DNA of 64,000 nucleotides from Ensifer adhaerens. GTDB taxonomy: Bacteria > Pseudomonadota > Alphaproteobacteria > Rhizobiales > Rhizobiaceae. The stretch covers positions 50,684 to 114,683 of the forward strand of contig NZ_JABEKT010000005.1 in assembly GCF_013283195.1 (NCBI RefSeq), given 5' to 3'. The notes below the pieces were generated by a model. The model saw only the letters and a list, made by a program, of their open reading frames with translations, was not told where the DNA came from and made no database searches. Positions 35,860 through 63,706 of the stretch are shown in pieces (position 1 is the stretch's first letter; each line of letters begins with the position of its first letter). Made by a program: the position numbers and the translations under genes.

Positions 35860-36138
35860 CTTTGGTCCCCACCGTTCTCGGACCTTAGTCTGAGCAAGAT
35901 TTCGCATGCCGGCGTTGCGCGAATGTCCGCAAAGCTTTGGCACCCGCCTCGGGCAGCCCTGCCTGTGACGCAGGTCCTTCTCGGTTGGAAAGTTAACCGT
36001 AACCATTTGATTGACTACAGAATTCCCTTGCCTCAATTGCGACTTTTGGCTTCTTTTGACGGACGATGCCGGAATTGGCGGAGGCATTTTTAAGGAATAG
36101 AGCATATAAGATCGCAGAAACGCGATCGGACAAGTCTC

Positions 36139-37632: not shown

Positions 37633-37676
37633 ATTTGGTTGATTGTTCGTCGACTTGCACAATCGCCGTCACGGCT

Positions 37677-37772
37677 CAGAGCGCCGCATTCGCGCGGAAT
37701 GCGGCGCTCTGGTGCATTGTTTCTGCAGCATCTTGTCCGCCTTCGGTGAAACCACTCGAAGGCAGGATGCTC
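37677..37772. repeat. Palindromic intergenic mosaic (RIME-like), copy B
   Basis: Between the converging kinase and regulator genes lies a perfect 15-bp stem (37677-37691 with 37697-37711, five-base loop) followed by a second imperfect palindrome (about 37728-37772, AGCATC...GATGCT arms around CTTCGGTGAAACCACTCGAAG). The two-palindrome layout and AGAGCATCCTGCC-type end resemble the mosaics at 19622 and 48931. It probably also terminates both transcripts. Confidence 0.6.
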
Positions 37773-38452
37773 TAGTTGATGCGCCGTGATGCGCCGCGCT
37801 CGGCAGAGCCGTCGGGCAGGACATCCAGGCGCTGCGCTGCCAGCACCACTTCCACACGGTTCCTGACATCGAGTTTCTGCATCAAGACCGTCATGTAATG
37901 TTTGACGGTCTTTTCGCTGATATCAAGACAGGCCGCTATTTCGCGGTTCGTGCTGCCACGCATGAGATGGCGAACGATCTGCTCCTCGCGCAGGCTCAGG
38001 CGTCGTTGTGCCTGAGACCGCCGGCGGATTTCCGCTGTTTTCATGGCCATGATGACCTTGGTCGCGAACCCCGCCGTGATGAACGTCTCGCCGTCATAGA
38101 CGGTGCGTATGGCCTCGTGAAGGTCGCTGGCGCTGCTGCCTTTCAGCACATAGCCAGAGACTCCGTAATTCAGGACTTGTATCGCGGTTTCAATGCTTGA
38201 ATTTGCGGTGAAGACGATGATCCGCGTGTCTTTGTATTTTTGCGCAACCAGCTCGATAGCCGCAATGGCGTCGCCGGGCATGCTCAAATCGAGCACGAGA
38301 ACTTGAGGTGAAAATTCTTCAACTATTTTCAAAGCATCGACCGCGTTTTCGCCCTTCGCGACGATCTCGAGGTCACTTTTTCCAGAATATAAACTGACCA
38401 GCCCTTCCAGAAGGATCGGATGGTCGTCAACAAATGCAACTGATATCGACAT
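37772..38452 (-). CDS. LuxR-family response regulator
   Basis: Two-domain regulator of 226 residues. The receiver has the acidic pocket FVDDHPILLEG, phosphoacceptor aspartate in VLVLDLSMPGD, FTANSS and the YVLKGSS lysine; the C-terminal LuxR HTH is LSLREEQIVRHLMRGSTNREIAACLDISEKTVKHYM-like. It converges with the HisKA_3 sensor kinase; the domain types match and the genes are end to end, so they are probably a cognate pair despite opposite strands. A CtrA-like TTAA-N7-TTAA sequence lies 65 bases upstream of its start. Confidence 0.88.
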   Translation of the reverse strand: MSISVAFVDDHPILLEGLVSLYSGKSDLEIVAKGENAVDALKIVEEFSPQVLVLDLSMPGDAIAAIELVAQKYKDTRIIVFTANSSIETAIQVLNYGVSGYVLKGSSASDLHEAIRTVYDGETFITAGFATKVIMAMKTAEIRRRSQAQRRLSLREEQIVRHLMRGSTNREIAACLDISEKTVKHYMTVLMQKLDVRNRVEVVLAAQRLDVLPDGSAERGASRRIN

Positions 38453-38903
38453 GGTCGTTGCTCTCCCTCCGCAACGAACATGCTAGTTCATCAGGTTCGC
38501 GTTTAAAAGAACACACTTAACTTCTAGTTAATTTAGAAAGTGAACGGATACCGCGGCGGCACGAACGAAGATACGGGTGGTACGTCTGAAACACAGCCGA
38601 AATATTCGCGTTGTGATCTAAGAAATAGACAAGCACCCTTTAGACGGGAACCCGTAAAATCCAGACTATTACAATCTTTACAATTGCTTATGCGACCAAA
38701 GGGTCACTCGGCTGGGCGCAACCCGGGAGGAGGGAAACGCGAGGCAGCGTTTTCTGGAGAATCTCGGTACATTTTAAGTAACGCCAGAATATTAGCCCAA
38801 AAATGTTTGCCGTCGCCGCCAATGATCACCCGAAAGTACTACGGATTTTAACCTTATTGCACAGCATTGGCAGAAAGACGCCGCCGACTGCAGCGTTAAA
38901 ATC
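38453..38903. other. Gene-poor AT-richer interval upstream of the response regulator
   Basis: No convincing gene was found in these 451 bases. The part nearest the regulator gene carries TTAA-N7-TTAA at 38517-38531 (spacer CTTCTAG), close to a CtrA box but lacking the final C. The rest (38540-38900) is less GC-rich than its neighbours and has an open frame of 103 codons with atypical composition and no ribosome-binding site, which I do not call. Confidence 0.4.
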
Positions 38904-40064
38904 CTAGAACTTCATGCCGGGGACAACCAAGGGATTGTCCGAAAGCGCCTGGGCATCGGGACGATCGATTCGCGGCTTTCCGGTGAAGGCATCGAAAAGG
39001 TCGCGCACGAAAGCTTCGCTCAGCCCCTTGGTGATCAAGACCATGCGTGTCCGCCGATCGACCGGATCCGGCCAGGCGGTCAGCCGCTCCGGGGTATGAA
39101 AGACGTTCTGCACGCCGTGAAGCACCAGCGGTCGCTCCGGGTTGTCGGAAACGGAGACGATCGCCTTCATCCGCAGCAGTTTTTCGCCATGGGCCGAGCG
39201 CAGGAGATCGATGAACATGTCGAGCGCCATCGGTTCGATCGGCCTGTCATGCAGGATGCTGAACGAACGAATGTCCGCACCATGACGGGTCACATCGTGG
39301 TGGTGGTGGTGGCCATGGTCGTGGTGATGGTGATGGTGATCCCCACCATGGTGATGGTGGTCGTGACCATGGTGGTCGTGGTCGTGATCCGCCTCGTCCT
39401 GCAGCCAGCGGCCGACATCGGCGATCTTCGAGGCCGGGTCATAGAGGCCGCAGGCAAATAGTTCACCCTTGCCCGCCTCGGGACCGTCTCCGTCGATGAA
39501 TGGCGCACGCGGATTGATCCCGCGCAGGCGCGACCGCAGCTCGTCCAGTTGCTTGCCATCGGCGAGGCCAGCCTTGCTGATGACGATGCGATCAGCGACC
39601 GCGACCTGCTTCAGCGCTTCCTCGTGGTTGGCAAGCGTCTGCAAGCCATTGACCGCATCGACCACCGTCACCACACCGTCGAGGCGGAAACTCTGGGCGA
39701 TTATCGGATTGCCGATCACCGACTGCAGCACCGGCGCCGGGTCGGCAAGCCCGGTCGTTTCGATGACGACGCGCTTCAGCGGCTTGATGCGCCCCGTCTG
39801 CATCCGGTCCATGAGGTCGGCAAGCGTATCCACCAGTTCGCCGCGCACCGTGCAGCACAGGCAGCCGTCGGAAAGCTCGATGACGCCGTCGCTCGAGGCT
39901 TCCACCAGGAGGTGATCGATCGAGACATCGCCGAACTCGTTGATGATCACGGCCGTGTCCGAGAGATCCGGATCCTTCAGCAGACGGTTCAAAAGCGTCG
40001 TTTTGCCCGCACCGAGAAAACCGGTCAGGATCGAAACCGGCACCGCCGGCAGTGGGCTAACCAT
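38904..40064 (-). CDS. COG0523 GTPase with His-rich loop (CobW/ZigA-like)
   Basis: P-loop GTPase of 386 residues: Walker A LTGFLGAGKTTLLN (residues 13-26), the metal motif GCLCC (C68, C70, C71), and the C-terminal CobW domain (ADIRSFSILHDRPIEP to the end). Between the domains is an exceptional metal-binding segment at about 228-260 rich in His and Asp (groups of three to six His). COG0523 proteins deliver zinc, or cobalt, to client metalloenzymes; CobW in B12 synthesis is one member, ZigA/ZagA another. No B12 gene is adjacent, so zinc handling is as likely. It is 12 bases after the carboxypeptidase gene, on the same strand, so possibly an operon. Confidence 0.85.
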   Translation of the reverse strand: MVSPLPAVPVSILTGFLGAGKTTLLNRLLKDPDLSDTAVIINEFGDVSIDHLLVEASSDGVIELSDGCLCCTVRGELVDTLADLMDRMQTGRIKPLKRVVIETTGLADPAPVLQSVIGNPIIAQSFRLDGVVTVVDAVNGLQTLANHEEALKQVAVADRIVISKAGLADGKQLDELRSRLRGINPRAPFIDGDGPEAGKGELFACGLYDPASKIADVGRWLQDEADHDHDHHGHDHHHHGGDHHHHHHDHGHHHHHDVTRHGADIRSFSILHDRPIEPMALDMFIDLLRSAHGEKLLRMKAIVSVSDNPERPLVLHGVQNVFHTPERLTAWPDPVDRRTRMVLITKGLSEAFVRDLFDAFTGKPRIDRPDAQALSDNPLVVPGMKF

Positions 40065-40076
40065 GGAAAACTCCGA

Positions 40077-41198
40077 TCAGAGGCTCGGCCGCGGCACCGG
40101 GATCGGCACATTGGCGACGTCGCCCTGGCCGGCCGGATCAGAGCCGGCCTTGGCCAGCTTGTCGCCGCTGCCGGGGATGAGGCCGGCAAAGGCCAGCTTC
40201 AGCGGGCGGTTGATCTCGTGGATGAACGGCGAAAGCAGCTTCTGCCGTCCGGCTTCGTCGCGACCTTCGCTGCGCACCTTGGCGGCGGCCTGCGAGCAGA
40301 TCTGCTTGCTGACGTCGGCAACCAGGTCGCGTGTTTCGCCATAGGGCGCAATCTGCACCAGCGATGGCTTGGCCGCTCCCGAGGTCGTCAGCGCCATTTG
40401 CAGCAGCCGCGCGGATTCATCGGCACGGGCGCCGAGGCTGTCCTCGCCAAGCACGACCGAAACGACGCTGCGGCCGTCGCGCGTCGCTGAGGAGACCTGG
40501 TTGAAACCGGACGCGCAGATGAAGCCGGTCTTCATGCCGTCAGCGCCTTCGAAGCGGCCGATCAGCATGTTGTAGTTCGGGTAGTCCTTCTTGCCGGTGG
40601 TAAATCCTTCCAGCGAGAAATAGGAAGCATATTCGGGAAACTCGCGCTTCAGCGTGATCGCCAGCACCGCAAGGTCGCGCGCTGTGGTGTACTGGCCCGG
40701 CCCCGGCAAGCCGTTGGCGTTGACGAAATGCGACGACGTCATGCCGATGCGGCGCGCCTCGGAATTCATCCGGTCGATAAAGGCGGGCTCGGAGCCACCA
40801 ACGGTTTCGGCGATCGCCACCGCCACGTCGTTGGCCGACTTCACCAGCATCATCTTCAGGGCGCTGTCGAGCGTCATCGCCTGGCCGGGCTTGTAAAACA
40901 TCTTGCTCGGCGGCTCGGAGGCGGCGTTCTTGGTCATCACGACCGGGCTCGTCAGCGCCAGCTGTCCCGATTTGATCGCCCGGAAGGCGGTATAGGCCGT
41001 CATCAGCTTGGTCAGCGATGCCGGATACCATTTCTGGAAGATATCCTGGTGCTCGTAAACCTTCAGTGTATTGACGTCGACGACGAGCCGCGGATTGGCA
41101 AATGCCGGCAAAGCCATGAGAAGGCTCGCGCAGGTGCCAGCCACGACACCCATTGCCTTTGCCTTGCCACGCGTGAAAAATCCTGCTGTCACTACCAT
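40077..41198 (-). CDS. D-alanyl-D-alanine carboxypeptidase (S11 PBP)
   Basis: Periplasmic penicillin-binding protein of 373 residues that trims the terminal D-Ala of peptidoglycan peptides. A signal peptide (VVAGTCASLLMALPAFA) precedes the S11 domain with PASLTKLM (S-x-x-K), VKSANDVAVAIAE (S-x-N) and GMKTGF (K-T-G). The C-terminal 90 residues (PFIHEINRPLKLAFA onwards) are a basic/Pro-rich extension instead of the usual amphipathic anchor, as in many rhizobial DacC/D proteins. The ATG at 41198 (MVVTAGFFTRGKAKAMG) starts a normal signal. Coupled closely to the COG0523 GTPase gene; diverges from the M20 amidohydrolase gene. Confidence 0.9.
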   Translation of the reverse strand: MVVTAGFFTRGKAKAMGVVAGTCASLLMALPAFANPRLVVDVNTLKVYEHQDIFQKWYPASLTKLMTAYTAFRAIKSGQLALTSPVVMTKNAASEPPSKMFYKPGQAMTLDSALKMMLVKSANDVAVAIAETVGGSEPAFIDRMNSEARRIGMTSSHFVNANGLPGPGQYTTARDLAVLAITLKREFPEYASYFSLEGFTTGKKDYPNYNMLIGRFEGADGMKTGFICASGFNQVSSATRDGRSVVSVVLGEDSLGARADESARLLQMALTTSGAAKPSLVQIAPYGETRDLVADVSKQICSQAAAKVRSEGRDEAGRQKLLSPFIHEINRPLKLAFAGLIPGSGDKLAKAGSDPAGQGDVANVPIPVPRPSL

Positions 41199-41338
41199 AG
41201 ACCTCGAAATTCCGCTGTTGCCTCGTCTCGTTCGGCTATTTAGCCTATATGGCGAGGAGATGGCAAAGCCCATTCATTGGCTGCTGCGCCAATCCACCGC
41301 AGATAGATGTGATCGAACAGACCGACAGGACGTATCTC

Positions 41339-42502
41339 ATGCCGATTCTCAACCGTGCCGCCGAACTGCAAAACGAAGTCACCGAATGGCGGCGTCATCT
41401 GCACAAGAACCCCGAGCTCCTGTTCGCGGTGGAAAATACGGCAGCCTTCGTCGAAAATAAACTGAAGGAATTTGGCGTTGACGAAATCGTGACTGGCCTT
41501 GGCCAGACGGGCGTCGTCGGCCTCATCAAGGGCAATCTCGGTCCCGGCCGCACCATCGGCCTTCGTGCCGACATGGATGCGCTGCCGATCACCGAGACCA
41601 CTGGCAAGCCCTGGGCGTCGGAAACATCCGGCAAGATGCACGCCTGCGGCCATGACGGCCACACCGCCATGCTGCTTGGCGCGGCCAAGTACCTGGCCGA
41701 GACGCGCAACTTTGCCGGCAGCGTCGCCGTGATCTTCCAGCCAGCCGAAGAAGGCGGCGGCGGCGGCCATGAGATGGTCAAGGACGGCATGATGGAGCGG
41801 TTCGACATCGCCGAAGTCTACGGCATGCACAATATGCCGGGCATGCCCATTGGTCATTTCGGCAGCCGCGTCGGCGCGATCATGGCGTCAACGGACGAGT
41901 TCACCATCACCATCAAGGGCCGCGGCGGCCATGCGGCCCAGCCGCACAAGACGATCGACCCGATCGTCATCGGCACCCAGATCGTCACCGCGCTACAGAC
42001 GATCGCGTCGAGAACCGTCGATCCGCTCGCATCGGTCGTCGTCTCGGTCACCACGTTCAACGCCGGCTTCGCCCACAACGTGATCCCGGAGGAAGCTGTG
42101 CTCGGCGGCACCGTGCGCACACTGAAGCCGGAAGTGCGCGATATCGGCGAGACCCGCATCCGGCTGATCGCCGAAGGCATCGCCGACGTCTATGGTGCCA
42201 CCGTCGACGTCTGGTACAGCCGCAACTATCCCGTGACCGTCAATCATGAGGACGAAACGGCCTACGCGCTGAAGGCGGCTGCCGAAATCGCCGGCGAAGG
42301 CAACATCAGGCCGTCGCTCGACCCGATGATGGGCGGAGAAGACTTCTCCTATATGCTGCTCGCCCGCCCGGGCGCGTTCATCTTCATGGGCAACGGCGAC
42401 ACCGCCGGGCTGCACCACCCCGCTTATGATTTCAACGACGAAGCGATCCCGCACGGGATCTCCTATTGGGTGAAACTCGCGGAAACGCGACTTGCCGCCT
42501 GA
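41339..42502 (+). CDS. M20-family amidohydrolase (hippurate-hydrolase-like)
   Basis: Metal-dependent amidohydrolase of 387 residues. RADMDALPITE, SGKMHACGHDGHTAMLLGAAKYLAE and IFQPAEEGGGGG hold the metal ligands and catalytic glutamate of M20D amidohydrolases; DPIVIGTQIVTALQTI and VIPEEAVLGGTVRT belong to the dimerisation/lid domain. Members cleave N-acyl amino acids or indole-acyl amides; the substrate is not evident. An Lrp regulator gene begins 22 bases after its stop on the same strand. Confidence 0.87.
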   Translation: MPILNRAAELQNEVTEWRRHLHKNPELLFAVENTAAFVENKLKEFGVDEIVTGLGQTGVVGLIKGNLGPGRTIGLRADMDALPITETTGKPWASETSGKMHACGHDGHTAMLLGAAKYLAETRNFAGSVAVIFQPAEEGGGGGHEMVKDGMMERFDIAEVYGMHNMPGMPIGHFGSRVGAIMASTDEFTITIKGRGGHAAQPHKTIDPIVIGTQIVTALQTIASRTVDPLASVVVSVTTFNAGFAHNVIPEEAVLGGTVRTLKPEVRDIGETRIRLIAEGIADVYGATVDVWYSRNYPVTVNHEDETAYALKAAAEIAGEGNIRPSLDPMMGGEDFSYMLLARPGAFIFMGNGDTAGLHHPAYDFNDEAIPHGISYWVKLAETRLAA

Positions 42503-42524
42503 GGCGCGGGCGGGAGGCGGCACC

Positions 42525-42989
42525 ATGCATCAGATCGACAAGATAGACCGTAGAATTCTCAACATCCTGCAGGCGGACGGCCGGATCACCAATCTGGAGC
42601 TTGCCGATCGCATCGGCCTGTCGCCGACGGCGACCAGCGAGCGGCTGCGCCGGCTGTTGAAGGAAGGCTATGTTTCGGGCTTCGGCGCCCGCCTCGATCC
42701 GCAGAAACTCGGCTTCGGCCTGCTCGTCTTCATCGAGGTCATGCTCGACAAGACGACGCCCGATGTCTTCGACCAGTTCGCGACCGCCATCAAGCAGGCG
42801 CCGGCCGTGCTCGAATGTCACATGGTCGCCGGCGGCTTCGACTATCTCGTCAAGACCCGCTTCGAGGATATGGCGGCCTACCGCAACTTCCTCGGCCAGG
42901 TGCTGTGGACGCTGCCGGGGGTCAAGGAGACCCGCACCTACGCCGTCATGGAAGAGATCAAGAACGACGGCCCGCTGCCGCTCGTTTGA
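42525..42989 (+). CDS. lrp: Lrp/AsnC family regulator
   Basis: Regulator of 154 residues. The N-terminal HTH MHQIDKIDRRILNILQADGRITNLELADRIGLSPTATSERL-type block is followed by the RAM ligand domain (LLVFIEVMLDKTTPD, VLECHMVAGGFDYLVKTRFEDM). GGGAGG sits before the ATG at 42525, whereas an upstream TTG frame at 42492 overlaps the amidohydrolase. The segment GYVSGFGARLDPQKLGFG resembles the global leucine-responsive Lrp more than specific AsnC proteins. Terminated by a 12-bp hairpin. Confidence 0.85.
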   Translation: MHQIDKIDRRILNILQADGRITNLELADRIGLSPTATSERLRRLLKEGYVSGFGARLDPQKLGFGLLVFIEVMLDKTTPDVFDQFATAIKQAPAVLECHMVAGGFDYLVKTRFEDMAAYRNFLGQVLWTLPGVKETRTYAVMEEIKNDGPLPLV

Positions 42990-42999
42990 ACAAAACAAG

Positions 43000-43038
43000 A
43001 ATGGTCCCGGGACCCGATCGGCACCCGGGACCATTTCC
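43000..43038. terminator. Bidirectional terminator between lrp and the alcohol dehydrogenase gene
   Basis: AATGGTCCCGGG (43000-43011) pairs with CCCGGGACCATT (43024-43035), 12 perfect pairs with a 12-base loop, followed by TCCG. It sits in the 56 bases between the two converging genes, so it can end both transcripts. Confidence 0.65.
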
Positions 43039-43045
43039 GACAAGC

Positions 43046-45310: not shown

Positions 45311-45745
45311 TCAGCTCCGTTCGATATCCCGCCGGAGCACGATCGACGTCGTCAGGTCCTCGACATTATCCATGGTCGCCACCTCATTGCGCAGTTCGTT
45401 CAGCGCATTGATCGATCCGACCTCGACCTCGACCACCAGATCGAGCTGGCCGCTGACGGACGAAACCTTGCGTACCGAGGAAAAGCCCGCGAGCCGGTCG
45501 AGCACGCCGATCGATGGCGTGCGCTGGAGGGTGACGAGCAGGAAGGCCTGGATCTGTCCCTCCTCCAGCTGGCCGATATCGGCGCGGTAGCCGCGGATGA
45601 TGCCCGCCTTTTCGAGACGCGTGACCCGCTCCGTCGTCGCACTTCTGGAAAGCCCGATCCGGCCCGCCAGCGACTTCATCGGGATGCGCGCCTCCCGCGA
45701 CAGGATGCTCAGGATCGTCCGGTCGATCGCGTCGATGTCCTGCAT
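45311..45745 (-). CDS. Lrp/AsnC family regulator beside the split kinase/phospho-lyase gene
   Basis: Regulator of 144 residues: HTH block DIDAIDRTILSILSREARIPMKSLAGRIGLSRSATTERV, then the RAM domain (IQAFLLVTLQRTPSIG, KVSSVSGQLDLVVEVEVGSINALNELRNEV). Divergent from the kinase/M23/phospho-lyase gene at 45874, with a perfect inverted repeat between (45795-45813). This layout implies it senses an amino acid or amine and controls that gene. The ATG at 45745 (MQDIDAIDRTIL) fits the family better than the upstream one. Confidence 0.85.
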   Translation of the reverse strand: MQDIDAIDRTILSILSREARIPMKSLAGRIGLSRSATTERVTRLEKAGIIRGYRADIGQLEEGQIQAFLLVTLQRTPSIGVLDRLAGFSSVRKVSSVSGQLDLVVEVEVGSINALNELRNEVATMDNVEDLTTSIVLRRDIERS

Positions 45746-45794
45746 GATTTCTGCCTCCGAGCGCGCCGACAAGATGACGGTTATTATAAACATA

Positions 45795-45873: not shown

Positions 45874-48800
45874 ATGAACGACATGCTGAAGACGACACCA
45901 GACTTTTCCATCGACCAGGCGGCAGCGTTGCTGAAGCAGCATTACGGCCTTTCCGGCACGCTGTCGTTGCTTGCCAGCGAACGCGACCAGAACTTCAAGG
46001 TCGAGGCAGAAGGCGGCGCCAGCTATATCCTGAAGGTCGTCAATGCCGCCGAACCGGAGGTCGAGAGCGATTTCCAGACGGCGCTGCTGAGCCACGTCGC
46101 AACCTTCGCCGGTGAATTGCCGGTGCCGCACATCCGGCCGACCCTGGCCGGCACCAGCCTTGCCGAAACCACCAGCCAGCACGGCGTGCACCACCGGCTG
46201 CGTCTCGTCAGCTGGGTATCGGGCGTTCCGCTTGCCGAAACCGGCCGCAACGCCGCAGCGCTCCAGTCGCTCGGCCATATGCTCGGCCGCTTCGACGCCT
46301 CGCTGAAGGGCTTCATGCATCCGGGCGCGCTGCGCGACCTCGACTGGGACATCCGCAACGCCGGCCGTTCGAGGGACAGGCTCGCCCATATCTCCGCCCC
46401 TGAAGACCGGGCGCTGCTGGAACGTTTCCTCGCCCGCTTCACGCAATCGGTTGAGCCGAAGCTGGCGACGCTGCGCTCGGCCGTCATTCACAACGACGCC
46501 AACGACTGGAACGTGCTGGTCGACAAATCAGATCATGACCGTATCTCGGGCCTGATCGATTTTGGCGACGCGCTTTATGCGCCTGTCATCGCCGAAGTCG
46601 CGATTGCCGCCGCCTATGCCGGGCTCGACCATCCCGATCCGATCGGCGCCACGGCCGCCATCGCCCGCGGCTTCCACGCCGAATATCCGCTGCTGGAAGA
46701 AGAAGTCGATCTTCTCTTCGACCTTATCGTCATGCGCCTCGTCACATCGGTGACCATCTCCGCCTCGCGCCGCGCGCACACGGCCGACAATCCCTATCTC
46801 GCGATCAGCGAAAAGCCGGCCTGGACACTGCTGCGCAAGCTCGACCGGATGAACCGTCGCTTCGCCACCGCGATCCTGCGCAAGGCCTGCGGTTTTGAGG
46901 CTGCACCCGGAACGCGCAGCGTTGCCGCCTGGATCGCCGACAACCGCAAGACGCTTACGCCCCTTCTGGAGCGCCCGGCTGCGACCTATCCGGCAGCGCT
47001 CGTGCCCTATGGCGATCCTGATCATCCGATGACGGTCAAATCCGCAGGCGAACAGCCGGATGAAGCCCAGTCCATCTGGGAAGACTATTGCCGCGAAAAC
47101 GGCATCGACCTCGGCATCGGCCCCTGGGGTGAGGCCCGCACGGTCTATGCCGGCGAGATGTTTGTCTCGCGGCTGGTCGAGAACAACCGCCGCACCCACC
47201 ATCTCGGCCTCGACCTGTTCATGGCCGCCGGCACCAAGGTCTTCACACCAGTGGCCGCCACTGTCGTCAGCGTCGAGATCGAACAGGACCCGCTTGGCTA
47301 TGGCTGCCTGATTGCGCTTCGCCACGAGCCCGAGGGCTGCCCGCCCTTCGTGTCGCTCTGGGGCCATATGGCGCATGAGGCGATCGGCCGGATCAGGGCC
47401 GGCGACCGGCTCGAAGCCGGCGCGCTTGTCGGTGAAATGGGAACGCCGAAGGAAAACGGCGGCTGGGCGCCGCACCTGCACCTGCAGCTTTCCATCGACC
47501 CCAGCCTCTCGGCCACCGAAATCCTCGGCGTCGGCGAACCGCAATATCTCGACGTCTGGGCCGAACTCTTCCCCGATGCGCGCACCTTCGCCGGTATTGC
47601 CGAAGAGTTTTACGCGAAAACCGGTCGCGCGCATGACGAGATCGTCAAGCTGCGCAAGGAACTGCTGCTGCCGAACCTCTCGATCTCCTACGAAAAGCCG
47701 ATCAAGTTCGTGCGCGGCGAAGGCGTCTGGCTGATCGACGATCAGCGGCCGCGCCTATCTCGACTGCTTCAACAATGTCTGCCACATCGGCCATGCCCAT
47801 CCGGCCGTGGTCGAGGCCATGGCGAAGCAGGCAGCGACCCTCAACACCAACACCCGCTACCTGCACGACAACATCGTCGCCTATGCGGAACGGCTGACAG
47901 CGACGCTGCCCAAGGAATTGACGGTTGCCGGTTTCGTCAACAGCGGCTCGGAAGCAAACAGCCTGGCACTGCGCCTAGTGCGCGCCCATACCGGCCGCGA
48001 AAATGCCATCACGCTCGACTGGTCCTATCACGGCACCACGCAGGAGCTGATCGACATCAGCCCCTACAAGTTCCGTCGCAAGGGTGGCAAGGGTCCGAAG
48101 CCGCATGTGCATGTGGCTAATGTTCCCGACAGCTATCGCGCCCCGGCGGACTGGCCGGCCGAGGAACACGGCAAGCGTTTTGCCGAAAGCGTTGCCGAGC
48201 AGATCGCCGCCATGCAGGCCAAGGGCGAAGGTCCCGGCTTCTTCATCGCGGAATCGATCCCGAGCGTCGCCGGCCAGGTGTTCCTGCCCGACGGCTACCT
48301 GAAGGAAGTCTACCGCCTGGTGCGCGAAGCCGGCGGCGTCTGCATCGCCGACGAGGTCCAGGTCGGTTTCGGCCGCGTCGGCAGCCATTGGTGGGCGTTC
48401 GAGACCCAAGGCGTGGTTCCCGACATCGTCACCATGGGTAAGCCGATCGGCGATGGTCATCCGCTCGCCGCCGTCGTCACCACTCGTGAGGTCACCGACA
48501 GCTTCAACAACGGCATGGAGTACTTCAACACCTTCGGCGGAAACCCGGTTTCCTGCGCCGTCGGTCTCGCGGTGCTCGATGTCATCGAGGGCCAGGGCCT
48601 GCGCGGCAACGCGCTTGCCGTCGGCAACTATCTCATCTCCTCCTTCAAGGCGATGCAGGCGCGCTACGAGGTGATCGGCGACGTGCGCGGCATGGGGCTG
48701 TTCCTCGGCATCGAGCTGGTGACCGACCGCAAGACCAAGGCACCCGCCACCGAATTTGCCCGGGCGGTTTCCAACGGCGCCCGCCAGCGCGGCGTGCTGA

Positions 48801-48931
48801 TGGGGACGGAAGGGCCGCATGACAACGTCTTGAAGATGCGCCCGCCGATGATCTTCTCGAAACGCGACGCGAATCATCTGCTCGCCGTGCTCGAAGAGAC
48901 CTTTGCGGATGTGAGCAAAAGGCTCGGTTAA
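45874..48931 (+). pseudogene. Kinase / M23 / class III phospho-lyase fusion, frameshifted
   Basis: Reads as one protein of about 1018 residues interrupted by a one-base shift. Frame 1 (45874 to about 47740) encodes an APH-type kinase (Brenner loop VIHNDANDWNVLV with H206 and N213; LIDFGDALYAP) and an M23 domain at about 440-540 (HLGLD and HLHLQ zinc motifs). Frame 2 continues from about 47745 with [20 protein letters not shown], then a class III PLP enzyme with lysine in [19 protein letters not shown] and [13 protein letters not shown]. Removing one base near 47740 (GATCAGCGGC) restores the frame. The PLP part closely resembles animal ETNPPL/PHYKPL phospho-lyases, and the kinase resembles hydroxylysine kinase. 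Genuine mutation versus read error cannot be told. Confidence 0.82.
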
Positions 48932-49143: not shown

Positions 49144-50154
49144 ATGAAATCAGCAATTCTAGCGCTTGCGAGTGCGGCGTTTCTCGCCGGAACGGCCGCC
49201 AGCGCCGCCACGCTCGACGTCGTCAAGGAACGCGGCGAACTTCGCTGCGGCGTCAGCCAGGGCGTGCTCGGCTTTTCCGCGCCGAACGACAAGGGCGAGT
49301 GGAGCGGCTTCGACATCGACTTCTGCCGCGCGGTCGCAGCCGCCACACTCGGCAACCCGGACAAGGTCAAGTACGTGCCGCTCTCGACCAAGGAGCGTTT
49401 CACCGCGCTGCAGTCGGGCGAAGTCGACCTGCTTTCGCGCCAGACCACCTGGACACTGTCGCGCGACAGCGATCTCGGCATGAGCTTCGTCGGCGTCAAC
49501 TACTATGACGGCCAAGCCTTCATGGTGCGCAATGACCTTGGCGTGAAAAGCGTCAAGGAACTTTCGGGCGCCTCAGTCTGCACGGAAACCGGCACGACCA
49601 CCGAGCAGAACATGGCCGACTATTTCAGCTCCAACAACATCCAGTACCAGGTCATCGCCTTTGAAAAGCCCGACCAGACGATCCAGGCTTTCAACACCGC
49701 ACGCTGCGACGTCTACTCGACCGACGCCTCGGCGCTCTACGCGCAGCGTCTGACGCTGAACGACCCGGACCGCTTCGTCGTCCTGCCCGAAGTCATCTCC
49801 AAGGAACCGCTTGGCCCGGCCGTGCGCCAGGGCGACGAGCAGTGGTTCAAGGTCGTCCGCTGGACCTTGTTCGCGATGATCGAAGCCGAAGAGCTTGGGA
49901 TCACCAAGGAGAATGCGACGAAGATGCAGGAGAGCGGTACGGTCGGCCAGAAGCGCTTCCTCGGCATCGACAACGAAGCCGGCAAGGCTCTGGGTCTCGG
50001 GCCGACCTGGGCCTTCCAGGCGATCTCCGCCGTCGGCAACTACGGCGAAGTGTTCGAAAAGCACCTAGGCAAGGACAGCGCGCTCAAGATCGACCGCGGC
50101 CTCAACAAGCTCTGGAACCAGGGCGGCCTGATGTACGCGCCGCCGGCGCGCTGA
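49144..50154 (+). CDS. Amino acid ABC transporter substrate-binding protein (AapJ/GltI-like)
   Basis: Periplasmic binding protein of 336 residues with a signal peptide (LALASAAFLAGTAASAAT). The mature sequence LDVVKERGELRCGVSQGVLGFSAPNDKGEWSGFDIDFCRAVAA and VDLLSRQTTWTLSRDSDLGMSF are typical of cluster-3 polar amino acid binders such as AapJ. No permease or ATPase gene is next to it, so it must either use a transporter encoded elsewhere or the gene is a relic. GAGGAGAACAGGACA lies before the ATG. It ends at a strong intrinsic terminator. Confidence 0.9.
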   Translation: MKSAILALASAAFLAGTAASAATLDVVKERGELRCGVSQGVLGFSAPNDKGEWSGFDIDFCRAVAAATLGNPDKVKYVPLSTKERFTALQSGEVDLLSRQTTWTLSRDSDLGMSFVGVNYYDGQAFMVRNDLGVKSVKELSGASVCTETGTTTEQNMADYFSSNNIQYQVIAFEKPDQTIQAFNTARCDVYSTDASALYAQRLTLNDPDRFVVLPEVISKEPLGPAVRQGDEQWFKVVRWTLFAMIEAEELGITKENATKMQESGTVGQKRFLGIDNEAGKALGLGPTWAFQAISAVGNYGEVFEKHLGKDSALKIDRGLNKLWNQGGLMYAPPAR

Positions 50155-55457: not shown

Positions 55458-55630
55458 TCCCCCGATTTGTCGGCCCGCCGTTCATTTTTGGCTCGGGCCA
55501 GTTCCCGAAATGAAAGTTATCCCATCTCGATCAAATGTCAATCTTGTTTCAAAAAACATTCTCTGCTAGCAATTATGTAACAAAAATTAGAAATCGGGGT
55601 TCAAGCCATCGTTTTTGGGAGGCGGAAATC
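55458..55630. promoter_or_regulatory. Divergent promoter region between the importer operon and the RpiR regulator
   Basis: AT-rich 173-base interval, unlike its surroundings. It contains TGTTTCAAAAAACA (55545-55558, a TGTTT/AAACA inverted repeat) and a further GTAACA at about 55577. These are candidate sites for the RpiR-type regulator encoded from 55631, which would then control both the importer and the downstream enzyme genes. Confidence 0.45.
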
Positions 55631-56512
55631 GTGGCAATCCGGGATCGACTGACAGACGGAACCATCACCTTCACACGATCGGAACTGAAGATCGTGCGAC
55701 AGCTGCTGGCGAACTATCCGGCAGCGGGACTGAATACCGTTGCCTATCTGGCCTCCTCGGCGGGGGTCAGCAATCCGACCGTCGTGCGCTTTGCCAACAC
55801 GCTCGGCTTCGAGGGTTATCCGGAATTTCAGAAGGCATTGCTCAGCGAAGTTCAGGAGCGCATGAGCTCGCCGCTGTCGATGCTCGACGAGCGACGGCCG
55901 TCGCTGGAGCAGGAGAATTTCTACCAGTACTTCCTGCGCGCCAGCATCCATGCGCTCGAAGCCTCGATGCAGATGCTGCCGTCGGAGGATTTCGAGGCAG
56001 CCGTCGACGCAGCCGCCGACACGAGCGCGCGAGCGCATTGCCTCGGTGGACGTTTCAGCGGCTTTCTCGCCGGCCTGCTCTGGTCGCATATGAAGCAGCT
56101 CAGGGGCGACACCCGCTGGATCAACGGCAGCCAGGCCGACCAAGTCGATCAGCTCGTCGATCTCGGCAAGCGCGACGTGCTGTTCGTCTACGATTACCGC
56201 CGCTACCAGAACGACACCATTCGCTTCGCCCGGCAGGCGGCCGCACAAGGCGCCCGTATCGTACTGTTCACCGACCGGTGGCTTTCGCCTATCGCCGATT
56301 TTGCCACCGTCACGCTGACGGCGCCGGTCGACACGGTCTCGCCCTATGACACGATGGTGCCGGCAATCGCCCAGACGGAAGCGCTGATCGCGGCGCTGAC
56401 GGCCCGTCTCGCCACCCAATCCCGTGCCCGCATCGAGAAGATGGAGGAGCTGCGCCGCGGCTACGCCATCACCGAAGACGCTCTCAACCCGAACGTCGAC
56501 GACGGCCGCTGA
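55631..56512 (+). CDS. MurR/RpiR-family transcriptional regulator
   Basis: Regulator of 293 residues: N-terminal HTH_6 (FTRSELKIVRQLLANYPAAGLNTVAYLASSAGVSNPTVVRFANTLGFEGYPEFQKAL) and a SIS domain at about 115-250 (RAHCLGGRFSGFLAGLLWSHM, DVLFVYDYRRYQNDTIRFARQAAAQGARIVLFTDRW). The GTG at 55631 is chosen: GGGAGGCGG lies before it, whereas the ATG at 55535 lacks a site and falls in the AT-rich promoter. SIS domains here usually bind phosphorylated or amino metabolites. It diverges from the importer operon and is first in the direction of the catabolic genes. Confidence 0.88.
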   Translation: MAIRDRLTDGTITFTRSELKIVRQLLANYPAAGLNTVAYLASSAGVSNPTVVRFANTLGFEGYPEFQKALLSEVQERMSSPLSMLDERRPSLEQENFYQYFLRASIHALEASMQMLPSEDFEAAVDAAADTSARAHCLGGRFSGFLAGLLWSHMKQLRGDTRWINGSQADQVDQLVDLGKRDVLFVYDYRRYQNDTIRFARQAAAQGARIVLFTDRWLSPIADFATVTLTAPVDTVSPYDTMVPAIAQTEALIAALTARLATQSRARIEKMEELRRGYAITEDALNPNVDDGR

Positions 56513-56555
56513 CACGCCTGCCGCAAGGCCAGAACCACAACCGAGGAGAATCCGA

Positions 56556-57218
56556 ATGAGTGCCGTTACAGTGAAGGTCGGGGACGACATGCTGAGACGC
56601 GACAGCGACTACGAGCGCGGCCGCACGTCAGTGCTGTTCGTCGACATGCAGCGCATCTGGTGCGAACCCAATCTCGATCCGACCCACCCGCAGGACGCCG
56701 ACAGCTATTATCACAAGCGGCTGCGCCAGACGGTGATCCCCAACCAGGTCCGCATTTTGGAGGCCGCCCGCGCTGCGGGCTGCGAAGTGCTGCACACCAT
56801 CATCGAGAGCCTGACGCTTGACGGTCGCGACCGCTCGCTCGACCATAAACTGTCCGACATGCATGTGCCGAAGGGCTCGCCCGAAGGTCAGGTCATTCCG
56901 GAGCTGGCGCCTATCGACAACGAGATCGTGCTGCCGAAGACCTCGTCCGGCGTCTTCAACTCCACCAACATCGATTACATCCTGCGCAATCTCAACACCC
57001 GCTACCTGATCATCGCCGGCGTCATCACCGACCAGTGCGTCGACATGGCAGTGCGTGATGCGGCCGATCGCGGCTACCTCGTCACCGTCGTCAACGACGC
57101 TTGTGCGACCTACAGCCCCGAGCGCCACGAAGGCGCCCTTCGCGCCTATTCCGGCTACTGCTGGACCACCGATACCGACACTGTCGTCAGCCGCATTCAG
57201 GGCCTGCGCCAGGCCTGA
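56556..57218 (+). CDS. Cysteine hydrolase (isochorismatase-like family)
   Basis: Amidase-type hydrolase of 220 residues. The catalytic triad residues are visible: D in SVLFVDMQRIWC, K in VLPKTSSGVFNSTN, and C in GVITDQCVDMAVRDAADRGY, with a cis-peptide next to VIT. Members split amides, ureido or N-carbamoyl compounds. The gene is 43 bases after the RpiR gene with GAGGAG before the ATG, and 36 bases before the GS-like gene, consistent with one operon. Substrate unknown. Confidence 0.87.
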   Translation: MSAVTVKVGDDMLRRDSDYERGRTSVLFVDMQRIWCEPNLDPTHPQDADSYYHKRLRQTVIPNQVRILEAARAAGCEVLHTIIESLTLDGRDRSLDHKLSDMHVPKGSPEGQVIPELAPIDNEIVLPKTSSGVFNSTNIDYILRNLNTRYLIIAGVITDQCVDMAVRDAADRGYLVTVVNDACATYSPERHEGALRAYSGYCWTTDTDTVVSRIQGLRQA

Positions 57219-57254
57219 GCCATCGCCGAAGATCTTGAGACAAGAGGGGAATTC

Positions 57255-58601: not shown

Positions 58602-58616
58602 TACGGATAGGCTCCC

Positions 58617-60778: not shown

Positions 60779-63706
60779 CTACCAGCCCTCGTCCAGCACC
60801 CGCGTCAGCATGTCGGCGAAGAAGTCGGCGCTCTCGCGGCTGAGGCAGAGCGGCGGCTTGATCTTCAAGACGTTGAGGTGATCGCCGGTCGGCTGCATGA
60901 TGACCCCGAGCTCCAGCAGGCGGTCGCAGATGGCGGCCGTCTCCTCGCTCGCCGGCTCCAGCGTGTCGCGATCGCGCACGAATTCGACACCGAGATAAAG
61001 CCCCATGCCGTGCACCGCACCGACGATCGGAAACCGTTGCGCAAGCGCTTCGAGCCTGGTTTTGAGATAGCCGCCGACGACACGGGCGTTTTCCTGCAGC
61101 TTCTCTTCGTCGATGAGATCGAGCACCGTCTGGCCGACGACGGAGCTGACCGGGCTGCCGCCGGAGGACGAGAAGAAATAGCCTTCCTTCTCCAGCGCAT
61201 CGGCAATCTCGCGCCTGGTGATGACGGCACCGAGCGGGTGGCCGTTGCCCATGCCCTTGGCGATGGTGATGATATCCGGCACCACGCCCTGCTCCTCGAA
61301 ACCCCAGAAATAGTCGCCGAGCCTGCCATAGCCGACCTGCACTTCGTCGGCGATGCACACGCCACCGCGCTGGCGAACCATGGCATAGACGGCATCGAGA
61401 TAGCCTTTCGGCAAGGGAATGCCGCCGGCGTTGCCGTAGACCGGCTCGCAGATGAACCCGGCAAGCCCTTCGCCTGCGTCCTCCAGTTCGCGCAGCTTGG
61501 TCGCCACCGACCGCACGTAAGTGTCGGTGGTGTCGGCGCCGCGGAATTGTCCACGATAGGTATTGGGCGCGACGACAGCATGCACCCAGTCGGGACGGGT
61601 CTCAAGCGCCCGCGGGTTGTCGGCGATCGAAGTCGAGACCGCGTCGCTCGCCACCGTCCAGCCATGATAAGCCTCGAGCAGGCTGACGACATTGCGCTCA
61701 CCGGAAAATGCCCAGGCGAGACGCAAGGCAAGGTCGTTCGCCTCCGAGCCACTATTGACCAGGAACACCGTGTCGAGACCGTCAGGCGCAAGCGCTGCAA
61801 GCCTTTCGGAAAACTCGGCAACTGACGCATAGTGAAAGCGCGAATTGGTGTTGAGCAGCGACCATTGCCGACCGACCGCTGCCGCCAGCCTTGGGTGCCC
61901 GTGGCCAAGGATCGTCACGTTGTTGACCATGTCGAGATAGGCCCTGCCCTCGACATCGAACAGGTGCTCCTTCCAGCCGCGCTCGATCTGCGGCGGCTTG
62001 CTGTAGTAGTTCTTCTGCGGCCTGGCGAAATGCTGCTGGCGGCGATCAAGCAGGTCTGCCGAATGCGGCGCCGGCGCGTCGCAGTCGAAACCGAGAATGC
62101 CAGAGGGTGACGGGCAGAGCACGCGCCAGGCCTCGGCCTGATGGGCCGGGACAAACAATGGCGCGATCAACCCCGGTTCGCGGCAGAGCTGTACCCGCAT
62201 CAGCCCAAGCCCGTGGCCGGCCTCGACCACCGTGCCGACCGGCGCACCGGCGGCAACCGTCTCCTCAGCGTCCTCGGGCGGCTCCAGACCGGTGAGATGG
62301 AGAACGACTGCAGGACCGTTCAGCACCACCCGTCCGTCATGCCATTCGGTTCCGCCGGCAAAGGGCGCTCTGACGACAGTGCCAACAGGCAGGCACAGAT
62401 CGACATGCAGCGCAAAGGTCGAAGTCGGTCGCGACGCGCGAAGCGCACTCTCGGTCAGCCGATATTCGCCGTAACGGGTGGACGCCATGCCGATCGCATG
62501 CGCAGCCGTCTGCAACAGTGACGCTGGAAGGCCCTGGTGCTGCCACCGTTCCTCGGGAAGCAAGGGGCTGAGGATGGAAAGGTCGATCTGGCGCACGCCG
62601 GCCGGCTCGATCTCGACGAGCAACCCTTCGCCGATCACCGGCAGCGTTTTTTCAGGCGCGGCATCGACAGCGCGCAGGATCGCCTGCTGCATCAGCGCCG
62701 GCGGCACGGAAACGGCGACGTCGAAGATCGCACGTTCATGGGCGGCATTGCCCTGAACGTATGCATTGTCAGGGTCGATGGTCAGCTGCTGTTCGGAACT
62801 GGCGACCAGCACCGCGGCGCGCGCAACGACCAGCGGCCACAATGCCTTCAGTTCGCTTTCCTCGAGCGGGCAAACCGCATGAAAAGCCCTGATGGCCGGC
62901 AGGATGAAGAACGGATCGCCATCGGCATGATGCAGCAGCGAGGCACAGGTCACCGCCAGTTCGGCGACGAGCCAGCCTTTGAGAAGGTCGCCGAAATCGA
63001 TGACGCTGTCCGGCACCGTTCGACCCGCGGCATCCGGTTGCCCGACGACATTGTCGTCGGTGACGTCATGGTGGATGGCTTGTACGCGCAAGTCGGCGGT
63101 CAGCGTCTGAAGCCGGCGCATGGCGCCCACCATGGCCTCGGCAATCCGTTTCTTCAGCCCCTCGTCGTTCATGGCGGCAAGCAGGTGAAGCGCGACAGGG
63201 GCGGCATGCCTCAGGTCCCATTGCAGCTCGCGGTCAAGGCCCGGATGGTCGAAATCACGCAGCGCCACCGCCAACCGTCCGGCGATATCGCCGAGTGCTG
63301 CCACCGTTTCCGCGCTCAGATGCTTGCGGCGGGTCAACGGCACGCCTTCGAGATAGGTCAGCAGGCGAACGCGATAGGCCTCTCCGCGCACCGTCGTCTC
63401 GACAATGTCGTTGCCGTCGAGCGCACGCACCACCTGCGGCGCACGCACCGAACCTGCCTGGCGGGCGAGATGCAGCAAGGCGGCGTTCTGGGCCTGCAGT
63501 TCCTGCAGGTCATAGGCTGCCCGGCAGATCTTGAGGACAAAACGGGCCTCGCCCGTGTCGATCCGGTAGTTGCGGTCCTGCTGGCTGCCGAGTTCGCTCA
63601 AGGTGCCGGAGAGGCCGAAATGCTCCAAGAGGATGCGCGCAGCGTCGTCAGGCGCGACATCGGGCCTTGGCAATTCCGTGCGAAGCTTCAGCGCGTCTTG
63701 AACCAT
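60779..63706 (-). CDS. Kinase / degenerate M23 / class III PLP fusion protein
   Basis: Intact 975-residue relative of the split gene at 45874. N-terminal APH-type kinase: RNYRIDTGEARFVLKI, Brenner loop IHHDVTDDNVVG (about 208-219), SVIDFGDLLKG. Middle: about 425-520, an M23-like barrel that keeps one histidine (ALHVDLCLP) but lacks the H-x-H pair (GLGLMRVQLC), so zinc is probably not bound. C-terminal PLP enzyme from about 560: [34 protein letters not shown] lysine K817 in IITIAKGMGNGHPLG, SSSGGSPVSSVVG. Likely role: phosphorylation of a hydroxy-amine then elimination or transamination, inferred. Reads from a HutC-like gene 62 bases upstream. Confidence 0.85.
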   Translation of the reverse strand: MVQDALKLRTELPRPDVAPDDAARILLEHFGLSGTLSELGSQQDRNYRIDTGEARFVLKICRAAYDLQELQAQNAALLHLARQAGSVRAPQVVRALDGNDIVETTVRGEAYRVRLLTYLEGVPLTRRKHLSAETVAALGDIAGRLAVALRDFDHPGLDRELQWDLRHAAPVALHLLAAMNDEGLKKRIAEAMVGAMRRLQTLTADLRVQAIHHDVTDDNVVGQPDAAGRTVPDSVIDFGDLLKGWLVAELAVTCASLLHHADGDPFFILPAIRAFHAVCPLEESELKALWPLVVARAAVLVASSEQQLTIDPDNAYVQGNAAHERAIFDVAVSVPPALMQQAILRAVDAAPEKTLPVIGEGLLVEIEPAGVRQIDLSILSPLLPEERWQHQGLPASLLQTAAHAIGMASTRYGEYRLTESALRASRPTSTFALHVDLCLPVGTVVRAPFAGGTEWHDGRVVLNGPAVVLHLTGLEPPEDAEETVAAGAPVGTVVEAGHGLGLMRVQLCREPGLIAPLFVPAHQAEAWRVLCPSPSGILGFDCDAPAPHSADLLDRRQQHFARPQKNYYSKPPQIERGWKEHLFDVEGRAYLDMVNNVTILGHGHPRLAAAVGRQWSLLNTNSRFHYASVAEFSERLAALAPDGLDTVFLVNSGSEANDLALRLAWAFSGERNVVSLLEAYHGWTVASDAVSTSIADNPRALETRPDWVHAVVAPNTYRGQFRGADTTDTYVRSVATKLRELEDAGEGLAGFICEPVYGNAGGIPLPKGYLDAVYAMVRQRGGVCIADEVQVGYGRLGDYFWGFEEQGVVPDIITIAKGMGNGHPLGAVITRREIADALEKEGYFFSSSGGSPVSSVVGQTVLDLIDEEKLQENARVVGGYLKTRLEALAQRFPIVGAVHGMGLYLGVEFVRDRDTLEPASEETAAICDRLLELGVIMQPTGDHLNVLKIKPPLCLSRESADFFADMLTRVLDEGW

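What the first reader, a model, noticed from the sequence alone, without database searches (positions are those of the whole stretch)
45874..48931. Bacterial kinase-M23-phospho-lyase fusion, split by a single-base insertion
One long protein appears to join a hydroxylysine-kinase-like domain, an M23-like domain with intact zinc motifs (HLGLD, HLHLQ) and a class III PLP domain with [32 protein letters not shown] and NVLKMRPPM. Human ETNPPL/PHYKPL have the same blocks, and a bacterial kinase plus phospho-lyase fusion was noted when those enzymes were identified. A function coupling phosphorylation to elimination of phosphate and ammonia is predicted, but the M23-like insert is unexplained. The frame breaks near 47740.
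Basis: partly seen in the sequence, partly recalled or inferred. Interest (0 to 1): 0.75.

Follow-up and report, generated by a model that had tools for sequence, protein, structure and literature searches.

The report
Hydroxylysine-degrading fusion enzyme, one copy broken
A soil bacterium carries a broken copy of a widespread three-part enzyme that, judging by the genes it travels with in other bacteria, probably breaks down hydroxylysine, an amino acid typical of animal collagen.

Summary
Window 45874-48931 encodes an APH kinase, an M23 domain and an ETNPPL-type PLP phospho-lyase, split by one net extra base near 47740. The break is private: 15 of 15 other Ensifer genomes held carry the gene intact. 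The architecture is not new; NCBIfam NF004799 ('hypothetical protein') models all of it. New here is family-wide evidence. The five M23 zinc/catalytic residues are kept in 79 of 79 readable relatives from about 12 phyla, yet M23 is modular: some paralogues have a dead M23 and some direct kinase-lyase fusions lack it. Context in part of the family points to collagen hydroxylysine: a YgjK/MGH1-type glycosidase plus a beta-galactosidase, or hydroxyproline genes. In 41 Bacteroidota genomes with the gene, YgjK-type genes occur in 6, each within 3 kb of it, and 9 of 47 proline-racemase-family genes lie within 10 kb, 0.29 expected. The window genome's intact copy B sits in a glycosidase operon. Best reading: kinase plus phospho-lyase convert hydroxylysine to aminoadipate semialdehyde, ammonia and phosphate; M23 probably frees hydroxylysine from peptides. 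No activity was tested.

The parts
45874..47740 (+). Copy A, first piece: APH-type kinase (Pfam residues 32-272) and M23 domain (442-540); its frame runs on out of register to a stop at 48120
   Evidence: intact in 15 of 15 other Ensifer genomes
46480..46570 (+). Kinase catalytic loop (IHNDANDWN) and DFGD motif
   Evidence: sequence; the D, N and D are kept in 79 of 79 relatives
47195..47490 (+). M23 zinc/catalytic residues: HxxxD (HLGLD), WGH, HxH (HLHLQ)
   Evidence: all five kept in 79 of 79 readable relatives
47735..47765 (.). Frame break: one net extra base relative to the other Ensifer genomes, inside a GC-rich stretch with a short palindrome
47765..48931 (+). Copy A, second piece: class III PLP phospho-lyase domain in the next frame; the first start listed in this frame (GTG 47807) lies inside the domain
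45311..45793 (-). Divergent Lrp/AsnC-family regulator
   Evidence: an Lrp-type gene lies in the flanks of 27 of 80 related loci
49144..50154 (+). Amino-acid ABC substrate-binding protein (SBP_bac_3), next gene downstream of copy A
   Evidence: same order in Shinella zoogloeoides, S. meliloti Ak57 and Pararhizobium records, not in Shinella sp. PSBB067
60779..63706 (-). Copy C: intact 975-aa paralogue, kinase - degenerate M23 - phospho-lyase; member of NF004800 (PRK06149.1)
   Evidence: NF004800 1566.9 bits, cut-off 973; M23 ligands lost in 8 of 8 copy-C proteins examined

Best explanation
Copy A belongs to a widespread bacterial family (kinase - M23 - PLP phospho-lyase) that catabolises 5-hydroxylysine, mainly from collagen. 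Proposed steps: (1) the M23 zinc peptidase domain, inside the cell, frees hydroxylysine from short glycine-rich collagen peptides; (2) the APH-type kinase uses a nucleoside triphosphate to phosphorylate the C5 hydroxyl; (3) the PLP domain eliminates phosphate and ammonia, giving 2-aminoadipate 6-semialdehyde, which enters lysine-type catabolism. Copy B acts after an alpha-glucosidase and a beta-galactosidase have removed the Glc-Gal disaccharide that collagen carries on hydroxylysine. In this genome copy A is interrupted by one extra base, so it would give a kinase-M23 polypeptide without a joined lyase; copies B and C stay intact. Shown: domains, conserved catalytic residues, the private break, gene context. 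Inferred: substrate, reaction order, role of M23, cytosolic location. Estimates: family acts on hydroxylysine 0.75; copy A specifically 0.55; M23 is a working peptidase for hydroxylysine peptides 0.4.
For: Lyase: best solved relatives are the two phospho-lyases 6TOR (464.8 bits for A, 486.9 for B, 343.5 for C) and 5G4I (345.8/303.8/269.2), then 192-210 bits; the model of an intact orthologue fits 6TOR with TM 0.96 by target, 49% identity. M23 region: model pLDDT 93.4; Foldseek list of M23/LytM-fold proteins. Catalytic residues of all three domains kept in 79 of 79 relatives, except the first kinase H (H in 71, Y in 8). Context: YgjK/MGH1-type glycosidase in the flanks of 6 of 80 loci and 5 of 46 further loci; beta-galactosidase partners GH42 (S. 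meliloti, L189, L191-L193), GH35 (L119, L146), GH2 (L161); the window genome's own copy B likewise. In 41 Bacteroidota genomes with the gene, YgjK-type genes (NF007525, E up to 1e-30) occur in 6 and lie within 3 kb of it in 6 of 6; one of the six (G413) was chosen beforehand for this, so 5 of 5 without it. 4-hydroxyproline epimerase (575.2 and 592.5 bits, cut-off 376) beside the three-domain gene with a DHDPS-family gene; 9 of 47 proline-racemase-family genes within 10 kb, 0.285 expected. Glc-alpha1,2-Gal-beta-Hyl is the collagen unit (PMC8626586, PMC8537180; passages).
Against: No biochemical data. Copy A's own clade shows no glycosidase or hydroxyproline gene in its flanks by my queries; it travels with Lrp and amino-acid transport genes. 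By those queries 70 of 80 loci and 28 of 46 further loci have no glycosidase, galactokinase, DHDPS-family, 4-hydroxyproline-epimerase or D-amino-acid-dehydrogenase neighbour. Four of the six YgjK cases are close relatives (80-92% identity) and four of the seven racemase cases are 59-74% identical, so independent associations are about three and about four. The wider MGH1-like family PF22422 is not rare: in 8 chosen genomes 6 had it, often away from the gene, and it rings in 7 of 14 control genomes. The solved lyase relatives found are named phosphoethanolamine phospho-lyase or simply phospholyase; the hydroxylysine enzyme was not compared. M23 is absent from direct fusions that sit in the same kind of glycosidase operon, so it is not needed for the core reaction.
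Confidence: 0.6

Rival explanations
1. Amino-alcohol enzyme: the kinase phosphorylates ethanolamine or 1-aminopropan-2-ol and the lyase yields an aldehyde, ammonia and phosphate, as in an old bacterial amino-alcohol kinase/phospho-lyase route (recalled, not looked up).
For: The nearest solved lyase acts on phosphoethanolamine (6TOR, 49% identity). For copy A no neighbour names the substrate beyond an amino-acid binding protein.
Against: Neighbouring binding proteins tested are amino-acid type (SBP_bac_3; best NCBIfam hit lysine/arginine/ornithine, below cut-off). Hydroxyproline genes and Glc/Gal-removing operons beside other members fit hydroxylysine. An aldehyde dehydrogenase was detected near only 3 of 80 and 2 of 46 loci with one query.
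Confidence: 0.2
2. The M23 module is only a structural or regulatory spacer between kinase and lyase, not a working hydrolase.
For: Copy C keeps a degenerate M23 in 8 of 8 proteins examined and so do L179-L181; direct fusions do without it. EnvC, whose LytM domain is a regulator, is among the fold matches.
Against: All five zinc/catalytic residues are kept in 79 of 79 (a set chosen by full-length similarity to an M23-bearing query) and in 35 of 38 further three-domain proteins, although 30 of 41 aligned M23 regions are only 26-33% identical to the first. A mere spacer would not be expected to keep them.
Confidence: 0.3
3. The frame break is a sequencing or assembly error and the strain's gene is intact.
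For: Break private to this genome; it sits in a GC-rich stretch with a short palindrome; the piece after the break shows no relaxed constraint (dN/dS 0.046 and 0.042 against two relatives; 0.021-0.050 for three intact pairs).
Against: Between 43046 and 63706 it is the only indel against the nearest genome that falls in a probable coding region (aligned parts, judged by eye from ORF and likely start positions), so the assembly is not generally error-ridden there. A recent true mutation would look the same. A relative (S. medicae USDA1037, L098) has a frame break elsewhere in the gene.
Confidence: 0.5
4. Programmed frameshift or genuine two-gene organisation at this place.
For: Adjacent separate kinase and lyase matches exist in five genus genomes elsewhere, and Herbaspirillum has a hydroxylysine-kinase-annotated gene next to an aminotransferase gene and an Lrp gene (PMC13275390, passage).
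Against: 15 of 15 genus orthologues are a single frame at this site; the lyase frame has no listed start before the domain.
Confidence: 0.02
5. The PLP domain is an ordinary class III aminotransferase.
For: Pfam and record annotation say aminotransferase; for copy C the margin over other class III enzymes is smaller (269 against 210 bits).
Against: For copy A the weaker of the two solved phospho-lyases still leads the next solved enzyme by 153 bits.
Confidence: 0.06

Closest known systems
NCBIfam NF004799 (PRK06148.1, 'hypothetical protein') and NF004800 (PRK06149.1, 'aminotransferase')
   Same: NF004799 covers the whole kinase-M23-lyase protein; genus orthologues of copy A score 1649-1666 bits against a cut-off of 1128 and copy B 1353.9. 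Copy C is a full NF004800 member (1566.9 bits, cut-off 973).
   Different: No substrate is stated. The window copy A itself fails the full-length score because it is in two frames.
Human ETNPPL (6TOR), and human PHYKPL with hydroxylysine kinase
   Same: Lyase domain 49% identical to 6TOR, TM 0.96 by target; an APH-type kinase as partner (human kinase recalled).
   Different: Human enzymes are separate proteins without M23 (recalled); PHYKPL and the human kinase were not compared.
Arthrobacter phospho-lyase A1RDF1 (5G4I/5G4J)
   Same: Second best solved lyase, 345.8 bits for copy A.
   Different: Solved as a 446-residue chain holding the lyase only.
M23 peptidases (lysostaphin, LytM, EnpA, ShyA)
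   Same: Fold and HxxxD / H / HxH residues; TM by target up to 0.66, by query under 0.4 because the modelled stretch is longer than the domain.
   Different: Known ones act on peptidoglycan outside the cytoplasm (recalled); here the domain lies between two metabolic enzyme domains.
Collagen-utilisation cluster of Colwellia MAG BB5 (PMC7883544, passages)
   Same: Hydroxyproline epimerase, D-hydroxyproline dehydrogenase, deaminase, hydroxyproline dipeptidase, peptidyl-prolyl isomerase: gene types also seen beside some members of this family.
   Different: The passages name proline and hydroxyproline use; the search listing counts 0 occurrences of hydroxylysine in the paper.
GH63 YgjK and GH65 PGGHG/kojibiose hydrolases (PMC7263609, PMC9061262, PMC8626586, PMC8537180; passages)
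   Same: Neighbouring glycosidases score 387.6 (L119), 353.6 (L189), 347.8 (L161) and 360.2 (L193) bits to the YgjK model NF007525; PGGHG removes glucose from Glc-alpha1,2-Gal-Hyl.
   Different: All below the YgjK equivalog cut-off of 625 bits, so not YgjK itself; substrate untested.

Membership tests
NF004799 / PRK06148 family | Full-length match over the curated cut-off (1128 bits) | tested here: not met
   Window copy A: 854.9 and 777.5 bits in two frames. Genus orthologues meet it, 15 of 15.
NF004799 / PRK06148 family | Kinase, M23 and class III PLP domains in this order | tested here: met
PLP phospho-lyase (ETNPPL/PHYKPL type) | Closer to phospho-lyases than to transaminases or racemases; PLP lysine and aspartate present | tested here: met
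PLP phospho-lyase (ETNPPL/PHYKPL type) | Elimination of phosphate and ammonia from an O-phospho amine | not testable with these tools
   needs enzyme assay
Hydroxylysine kinase (APH superfamily) | APH fold with HxD(x4)N and DFG-type aspartate | tested here: met
   PF01636 99.4 bits; residues; profile hits to solved APH-type kinases, best E 1.9e-10; single-sequence search 0 hits
Hydroxylysine kinase (APH superfamily) | Phosphorylates 5-hydroxylysine | not testable with these tools
   context only
M23 zinc peptidase | HxxxD, catalytic H, HxH in the M23 fold | tested here: met
M23 zinc peptidase | Zinc binding and peptide hydrolysis | not testable with these tools
   needs assay
Collagen hydroxylysine pathway | Genes for removing Glc and Gal, or for hydroxyproline use, beside the enzyme | tested here: inconclusive
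   Met for copy B and for part of the family; not met for copy A's own neighbourhood

The most novel reading that the evidence does not exclude
Bacteria of many phyla carry a single intracellular enzyme that takes collagen's hydroxylysine all the way from peptide to semialdehyde: an M23 peptidase domain, a fold known from peptidoglycan work, recruited between a kinase and a phospho-lyase to free the amino acid, with glycosidase operons that first strip the Glc-Gal unit. This would be a bacterial route for glycosylated hydroxylysine, for which my paper searches (open-licence library, listings) showed no described bacterial catabolism.
Probability: 0.4. Interest if true: 0.75.

Novelty: new variant of a known kind. 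Interest (0 to 1): 0.6.

Why it matters
Hydroxylysine and its Glc-Gal disaccharide are typical of collagen. A bacterial enzyme family and operon type for using it would fill a gap in how collagen carbon and nitrogen are recycled in soil and sea, give a function to a large family now named 'hypothetical protein' or 'aminotransferase', and give the M23 peptidase fold a metabolic role inside the cell. It is directly testable in Sinorhizobium: S. meliloti Ak57 has copies A and C and S. meliloti 1021 has copy B; copy A in strain 1021 was not checked.

Tried and rejected
Two-gene organisation or programmed frameshift: rejected by 15 of 15 single-frame orthologues. Plain aminotransferase: disfavoured by scores. 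A search for guessed S. meliloti locus tags listed three papers; passages of two held nothing on this gene, the third was not opened. Dioxygenase, DprA and topoisomerase neighbours in Latescibacterota and Acidobacteriota looked incidental. Paper searches (listings; open-licence library only) showed no description of bacterial hydroxylysine catabolism by such a fusion; one returned 0 papers at three of six terms. Discarded results: the 'after the break' dN/dS values against the window are one codon out of register (which stopped with an error after two comparisons, is used instead; the intact pairs are in register); row L030 was on the wrong strand. Left out of counts: L098 (frame-broken); L160 and L195 of the 48 loci (no focal gene by my ORF picking). 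Flank counts are over 80 loci, of which L135 has no flanking ORF. My gene calls in flanks are a simple longest-ORF choice and miss some genes (a proline-racemase-family gene of G659 seen was missed).
Full report
Where it is. The window lies in a 7.07-Mb draft genome (20 contigs) on a 446-kb contig. Contig lengths of four sister genomes (G001, G005, G006, G009) equal those of named Ensifer records, so the genus is taken to be Ensifer (inference).

The observation. Frame 1 from 45874 carries an APH kinase and an M23 domain, frame 2 a class III PLP domain. NCBIfam NF004799 (PRK06148.1, 1015 positions, 'hypothetical protein') covers positions 1-622 in the first frame and 622-1013 in the second. 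In the genus, 15 of 15 other genomes held have the same gene in one frame without stops (1649-1666 bits). Against them the window has one net extra base near 47740. Against the nearest genome (92.4% DNA identity over the gene) 27 indels were seen in 27,720 aligned bases, 23 of them not multiples of three; between 43046 and 63706 only the one in copy A falls in a probable coding region, by my reading of ORF and likely start positions (some others lie in the N-terminal overhang of listed ORFs; 35859-43045 was not examined that way). Constraint is still visible on both sides of the break: dN/dS 0.13 before and 0.046 after against L022, 0.109 and 0.042 against L031; three intact pairs give 0.096-0.111 and 0.021-0.050. 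The break is therefore recent or an error; these tools cannot tell which.

Paralogues. The same genome has copy B (C12:954902-957904, 1354 bits, intact), copy C inside the window (60779-63706, minus strand, 975 aa) and a stand-alone 434-aa lyase-like frame (C15). Copy C belongs to the sister model NF004800 (1566.9 bits, cut-off 973). In S. meliloti Ak57 copies A and C flank the same amino-acid binding protein next to histidine-use genes. Copy C has lost the M23 ligands in 8 of 8 proteins examined, while its kinase and PLP motifs remain. Five genus genomes list adjacent kinase and lyase matches that skip the M23 positions (G001, G002, G005, G006, G010).

The family. A scan of one genome per species returned 80 loci, the best of 587 confirmed. 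One (S. medicae L098) is frame-broken elsewhere. In the other 79, from about 12 phyla by record title, the five M23 residues, the kinase D/N/D and the PLP D/K are all kept; the first kinase H is H in 71 and Y in 8. The set is biased towards full-length relatives. Full-length members over the NF004799 cut-off occur in 10 of 398 genomes sampled from the window's phylum, 22 of 345 from the phylum of L141 (Bacteroidota) and 6 of 369 from the class of L146. From the last two sets I fetched 48 loci and found the focal gene in 46: 35 three-domain proteins with all five M23 residues, 3 with a degenerate M23 (L179-L181), 7 direct kinase-lyase fusions of 760-785 aa with only 6-9 residues where M23 would be, and 1 lyase alone. 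M23 is thus a module that is kept whole, decayed or absent.

Structure. The M23 region of an intact Ensifer orthologue is predicted at pLDDT 93.4 and pTM 0.90; of 52 Foldseek matches at E up to 0.001, the 50 listed are M23 peptidases or LytM-fold proteins such as LysTt72, EnpA, lysostaphin, ShyA and Csd1/2, with phage structures, SpoIIQ and LECT2 among them; TM by query is 0.28-0.39, by target up to 0.66. The full protein is predicted at pLDDT 91.2, pTM 0.77; its top match is human ETNPPL 6TOR (TM 0.96 by target, 49% identity), then A1RDF1 5G4I. By sequence 6TOR and 5G4I lead for A, B and C alike. The kinase domain has no close solved relative: single-sequence search 0 hits, profile search 5 hits, best amicoumacin kinase E 1.9e-10.

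Context of copy A. A divergent Lrp/AsnC gene and a downstream amino-acid binding protein in this window and in Shinella zoogloeoides, S. meliloti Ak57 and Pararhizobium records; the Shinella sp. PSBB067 record differs downstream. In several Pseudomonas, Brucella/Ochrobactrum and Paraburkholderia relatives transporter-sized genes follow; the one binding protein tested there is SBP_bac_3 (L086). This says amino-acid-like substrate, no more. No glycosidase or hydroxyproline gene turned up beside copy A-type genes by my queries.

Context of copy B and of part of the wider family. S. meliloti pSymB: LacI regulator, amino-acid ABC genes, SDR, copy B, sugar ABC transporter, MGH1-like glycosidase, LacI regulator, GH42 beta-galactosidase. 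The window genome matches this set by similarity searches. L119 and L146: YgjK/GH63-like glycosidase, focal gene, GH35. L161: GH63-like, focal gene, GH2 LacZ-type. L189, L191, L192, L193: GH63-like, GH42, direct kinase-lyase fusion. L134, L137, L150, L153, L154 and L157 carry galactokinase and a DHDPS-family gene before the focal gene, L152 a truncated galactokinase and the DHDPS-family gene, L151 the DHDPS-family gene alone (L150's galactokinase 273.4 bits to TIGR00131, cut-off 226.65). An Xaa-Pro dipeptidase-type gene lies near 8 of 46 loci and near L137. L167, L169, L170 and L171 have a DHDPS-family gene and a 4-hydroxyproline-epimerase-type gene before the focal gene, L167 and L169 also a D-amino-acid-dehydrogenase-type gene, and L169-L171 a sodium symporter after it; the epimerase of L167 and L169 passes the NCBIfam cut-off (575.2 and 592.5 bits, cut-off 376). 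By the same queries 70 of 80 and 28 of 46 loci show no such neighbour.

Check over whole genomes. In the 41 Bacteroidota genomes that have the gene, YgjK-type genes (NF007525, E up to 1e-30) occur in 6 genomes, and in 6 of 6 the gene found lies within 3 kb of the focal gene; G413 was the seed of the sample and already known to have this, so the fair figure is 5 of 5. Proline-racemase-family genes number 47 in 33 genomes; 9 of them, in 7 genomes, lie within 10 kb of the focal gene, against 0.285 expected at random. Relatedness lowers the independent count to roughly three and four lineages (identities); for three cases the chance figures are 3e-6 (glycosidase) and 0.003 (racemase). Against the reading: the broader MGH1-like family PF22422 is common and often lies elsewhere in the 8 genomes looked at.

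Interpretation. Collagen carries Glc-alpha1,2-Gal-beta on 5-hydroxylysine (PMC8626586 and PMC8537180, passages). An alpha-glucosidase, a beta-galactosidase from any of three families, galactokinase, hydroxyproline genes and a kinase plus phospho-lyase of the hydroxylysine/ethanolamine type are what a cell needs to use that unit. YgjK has galactose at its +1 site in a complex (PMC7263609, passage) and its natural substrate was assumed to be an alpha-glucoside other than nigerose (PMC9061262, passage); that its glycosynthase makes Glc-alpha1,2-Gal is recalled. A collagen cluster described in Colwellia has the hydroxyproline part (PMC7883544, passages). The M23 step is the least certain: M23 peptidases cut next to glycine (recalled), and collagen has glycine at every third place, so freeing hydroxylysine from glycine peptides is the simplest proposal, but nothing here tests it.

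What is broken in this strain. Read as it stands, copy A yields kinase and M23 followed by a scrambled tail to 48120; the lyase frame has its first listed start inside the domain. Intact copies B and C remain, so loss of copy A need not abolish the pathway.

Noticed in passing
window 60779-63706 (-): Copy C, a paralogue with intact kinase and PLP motifs but a dead, shortened M23 domain, the same in 8 of 8 copy-C proteins examined; NF004800 member.
   Followed up: partly
window 55535-60757: Genes before copy C: RpiR/SIS-like regulator, isochorismatase-like, glutamine-synthetase-like, N-formylglutamate-amidohydrolase-like and class III aminotransferase ORFs (labels by eye from the ORFs; the aminotransferase also), a possible separate amine-catabolic cluster.
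   Followed up: no
L098 (Sinorhizobium medicae USDA1037), at or before codon 485 of the focal gene: A second frame break, at another place, in a copy A orthologue.
   Followed up: no
L187, L189-L194: Direct kinase-lyase fusions without M23 in Bacteroidota, four of seven in GH63-GH42 operons; L189 also has a SusD-like gene by a sub-cut-off hit.
   Followed up: partly
L046 (Shinella zoogloeoides plasmid), beside copy A: D-aminopeptidase, P1 peptidase and M55 peptidase genes next to the Lrp gene: peptide-use genes beside an M23-bearing enzyme.
   Followed up: no
A3 alignment, residues 72-78 and 140: Invariant G, E and R before the M23 core and a further invariant His (H140) in 42 of 42 aligned M23 regions; possible substrate site. 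The His is also kept in copy C.
   Followed up: no
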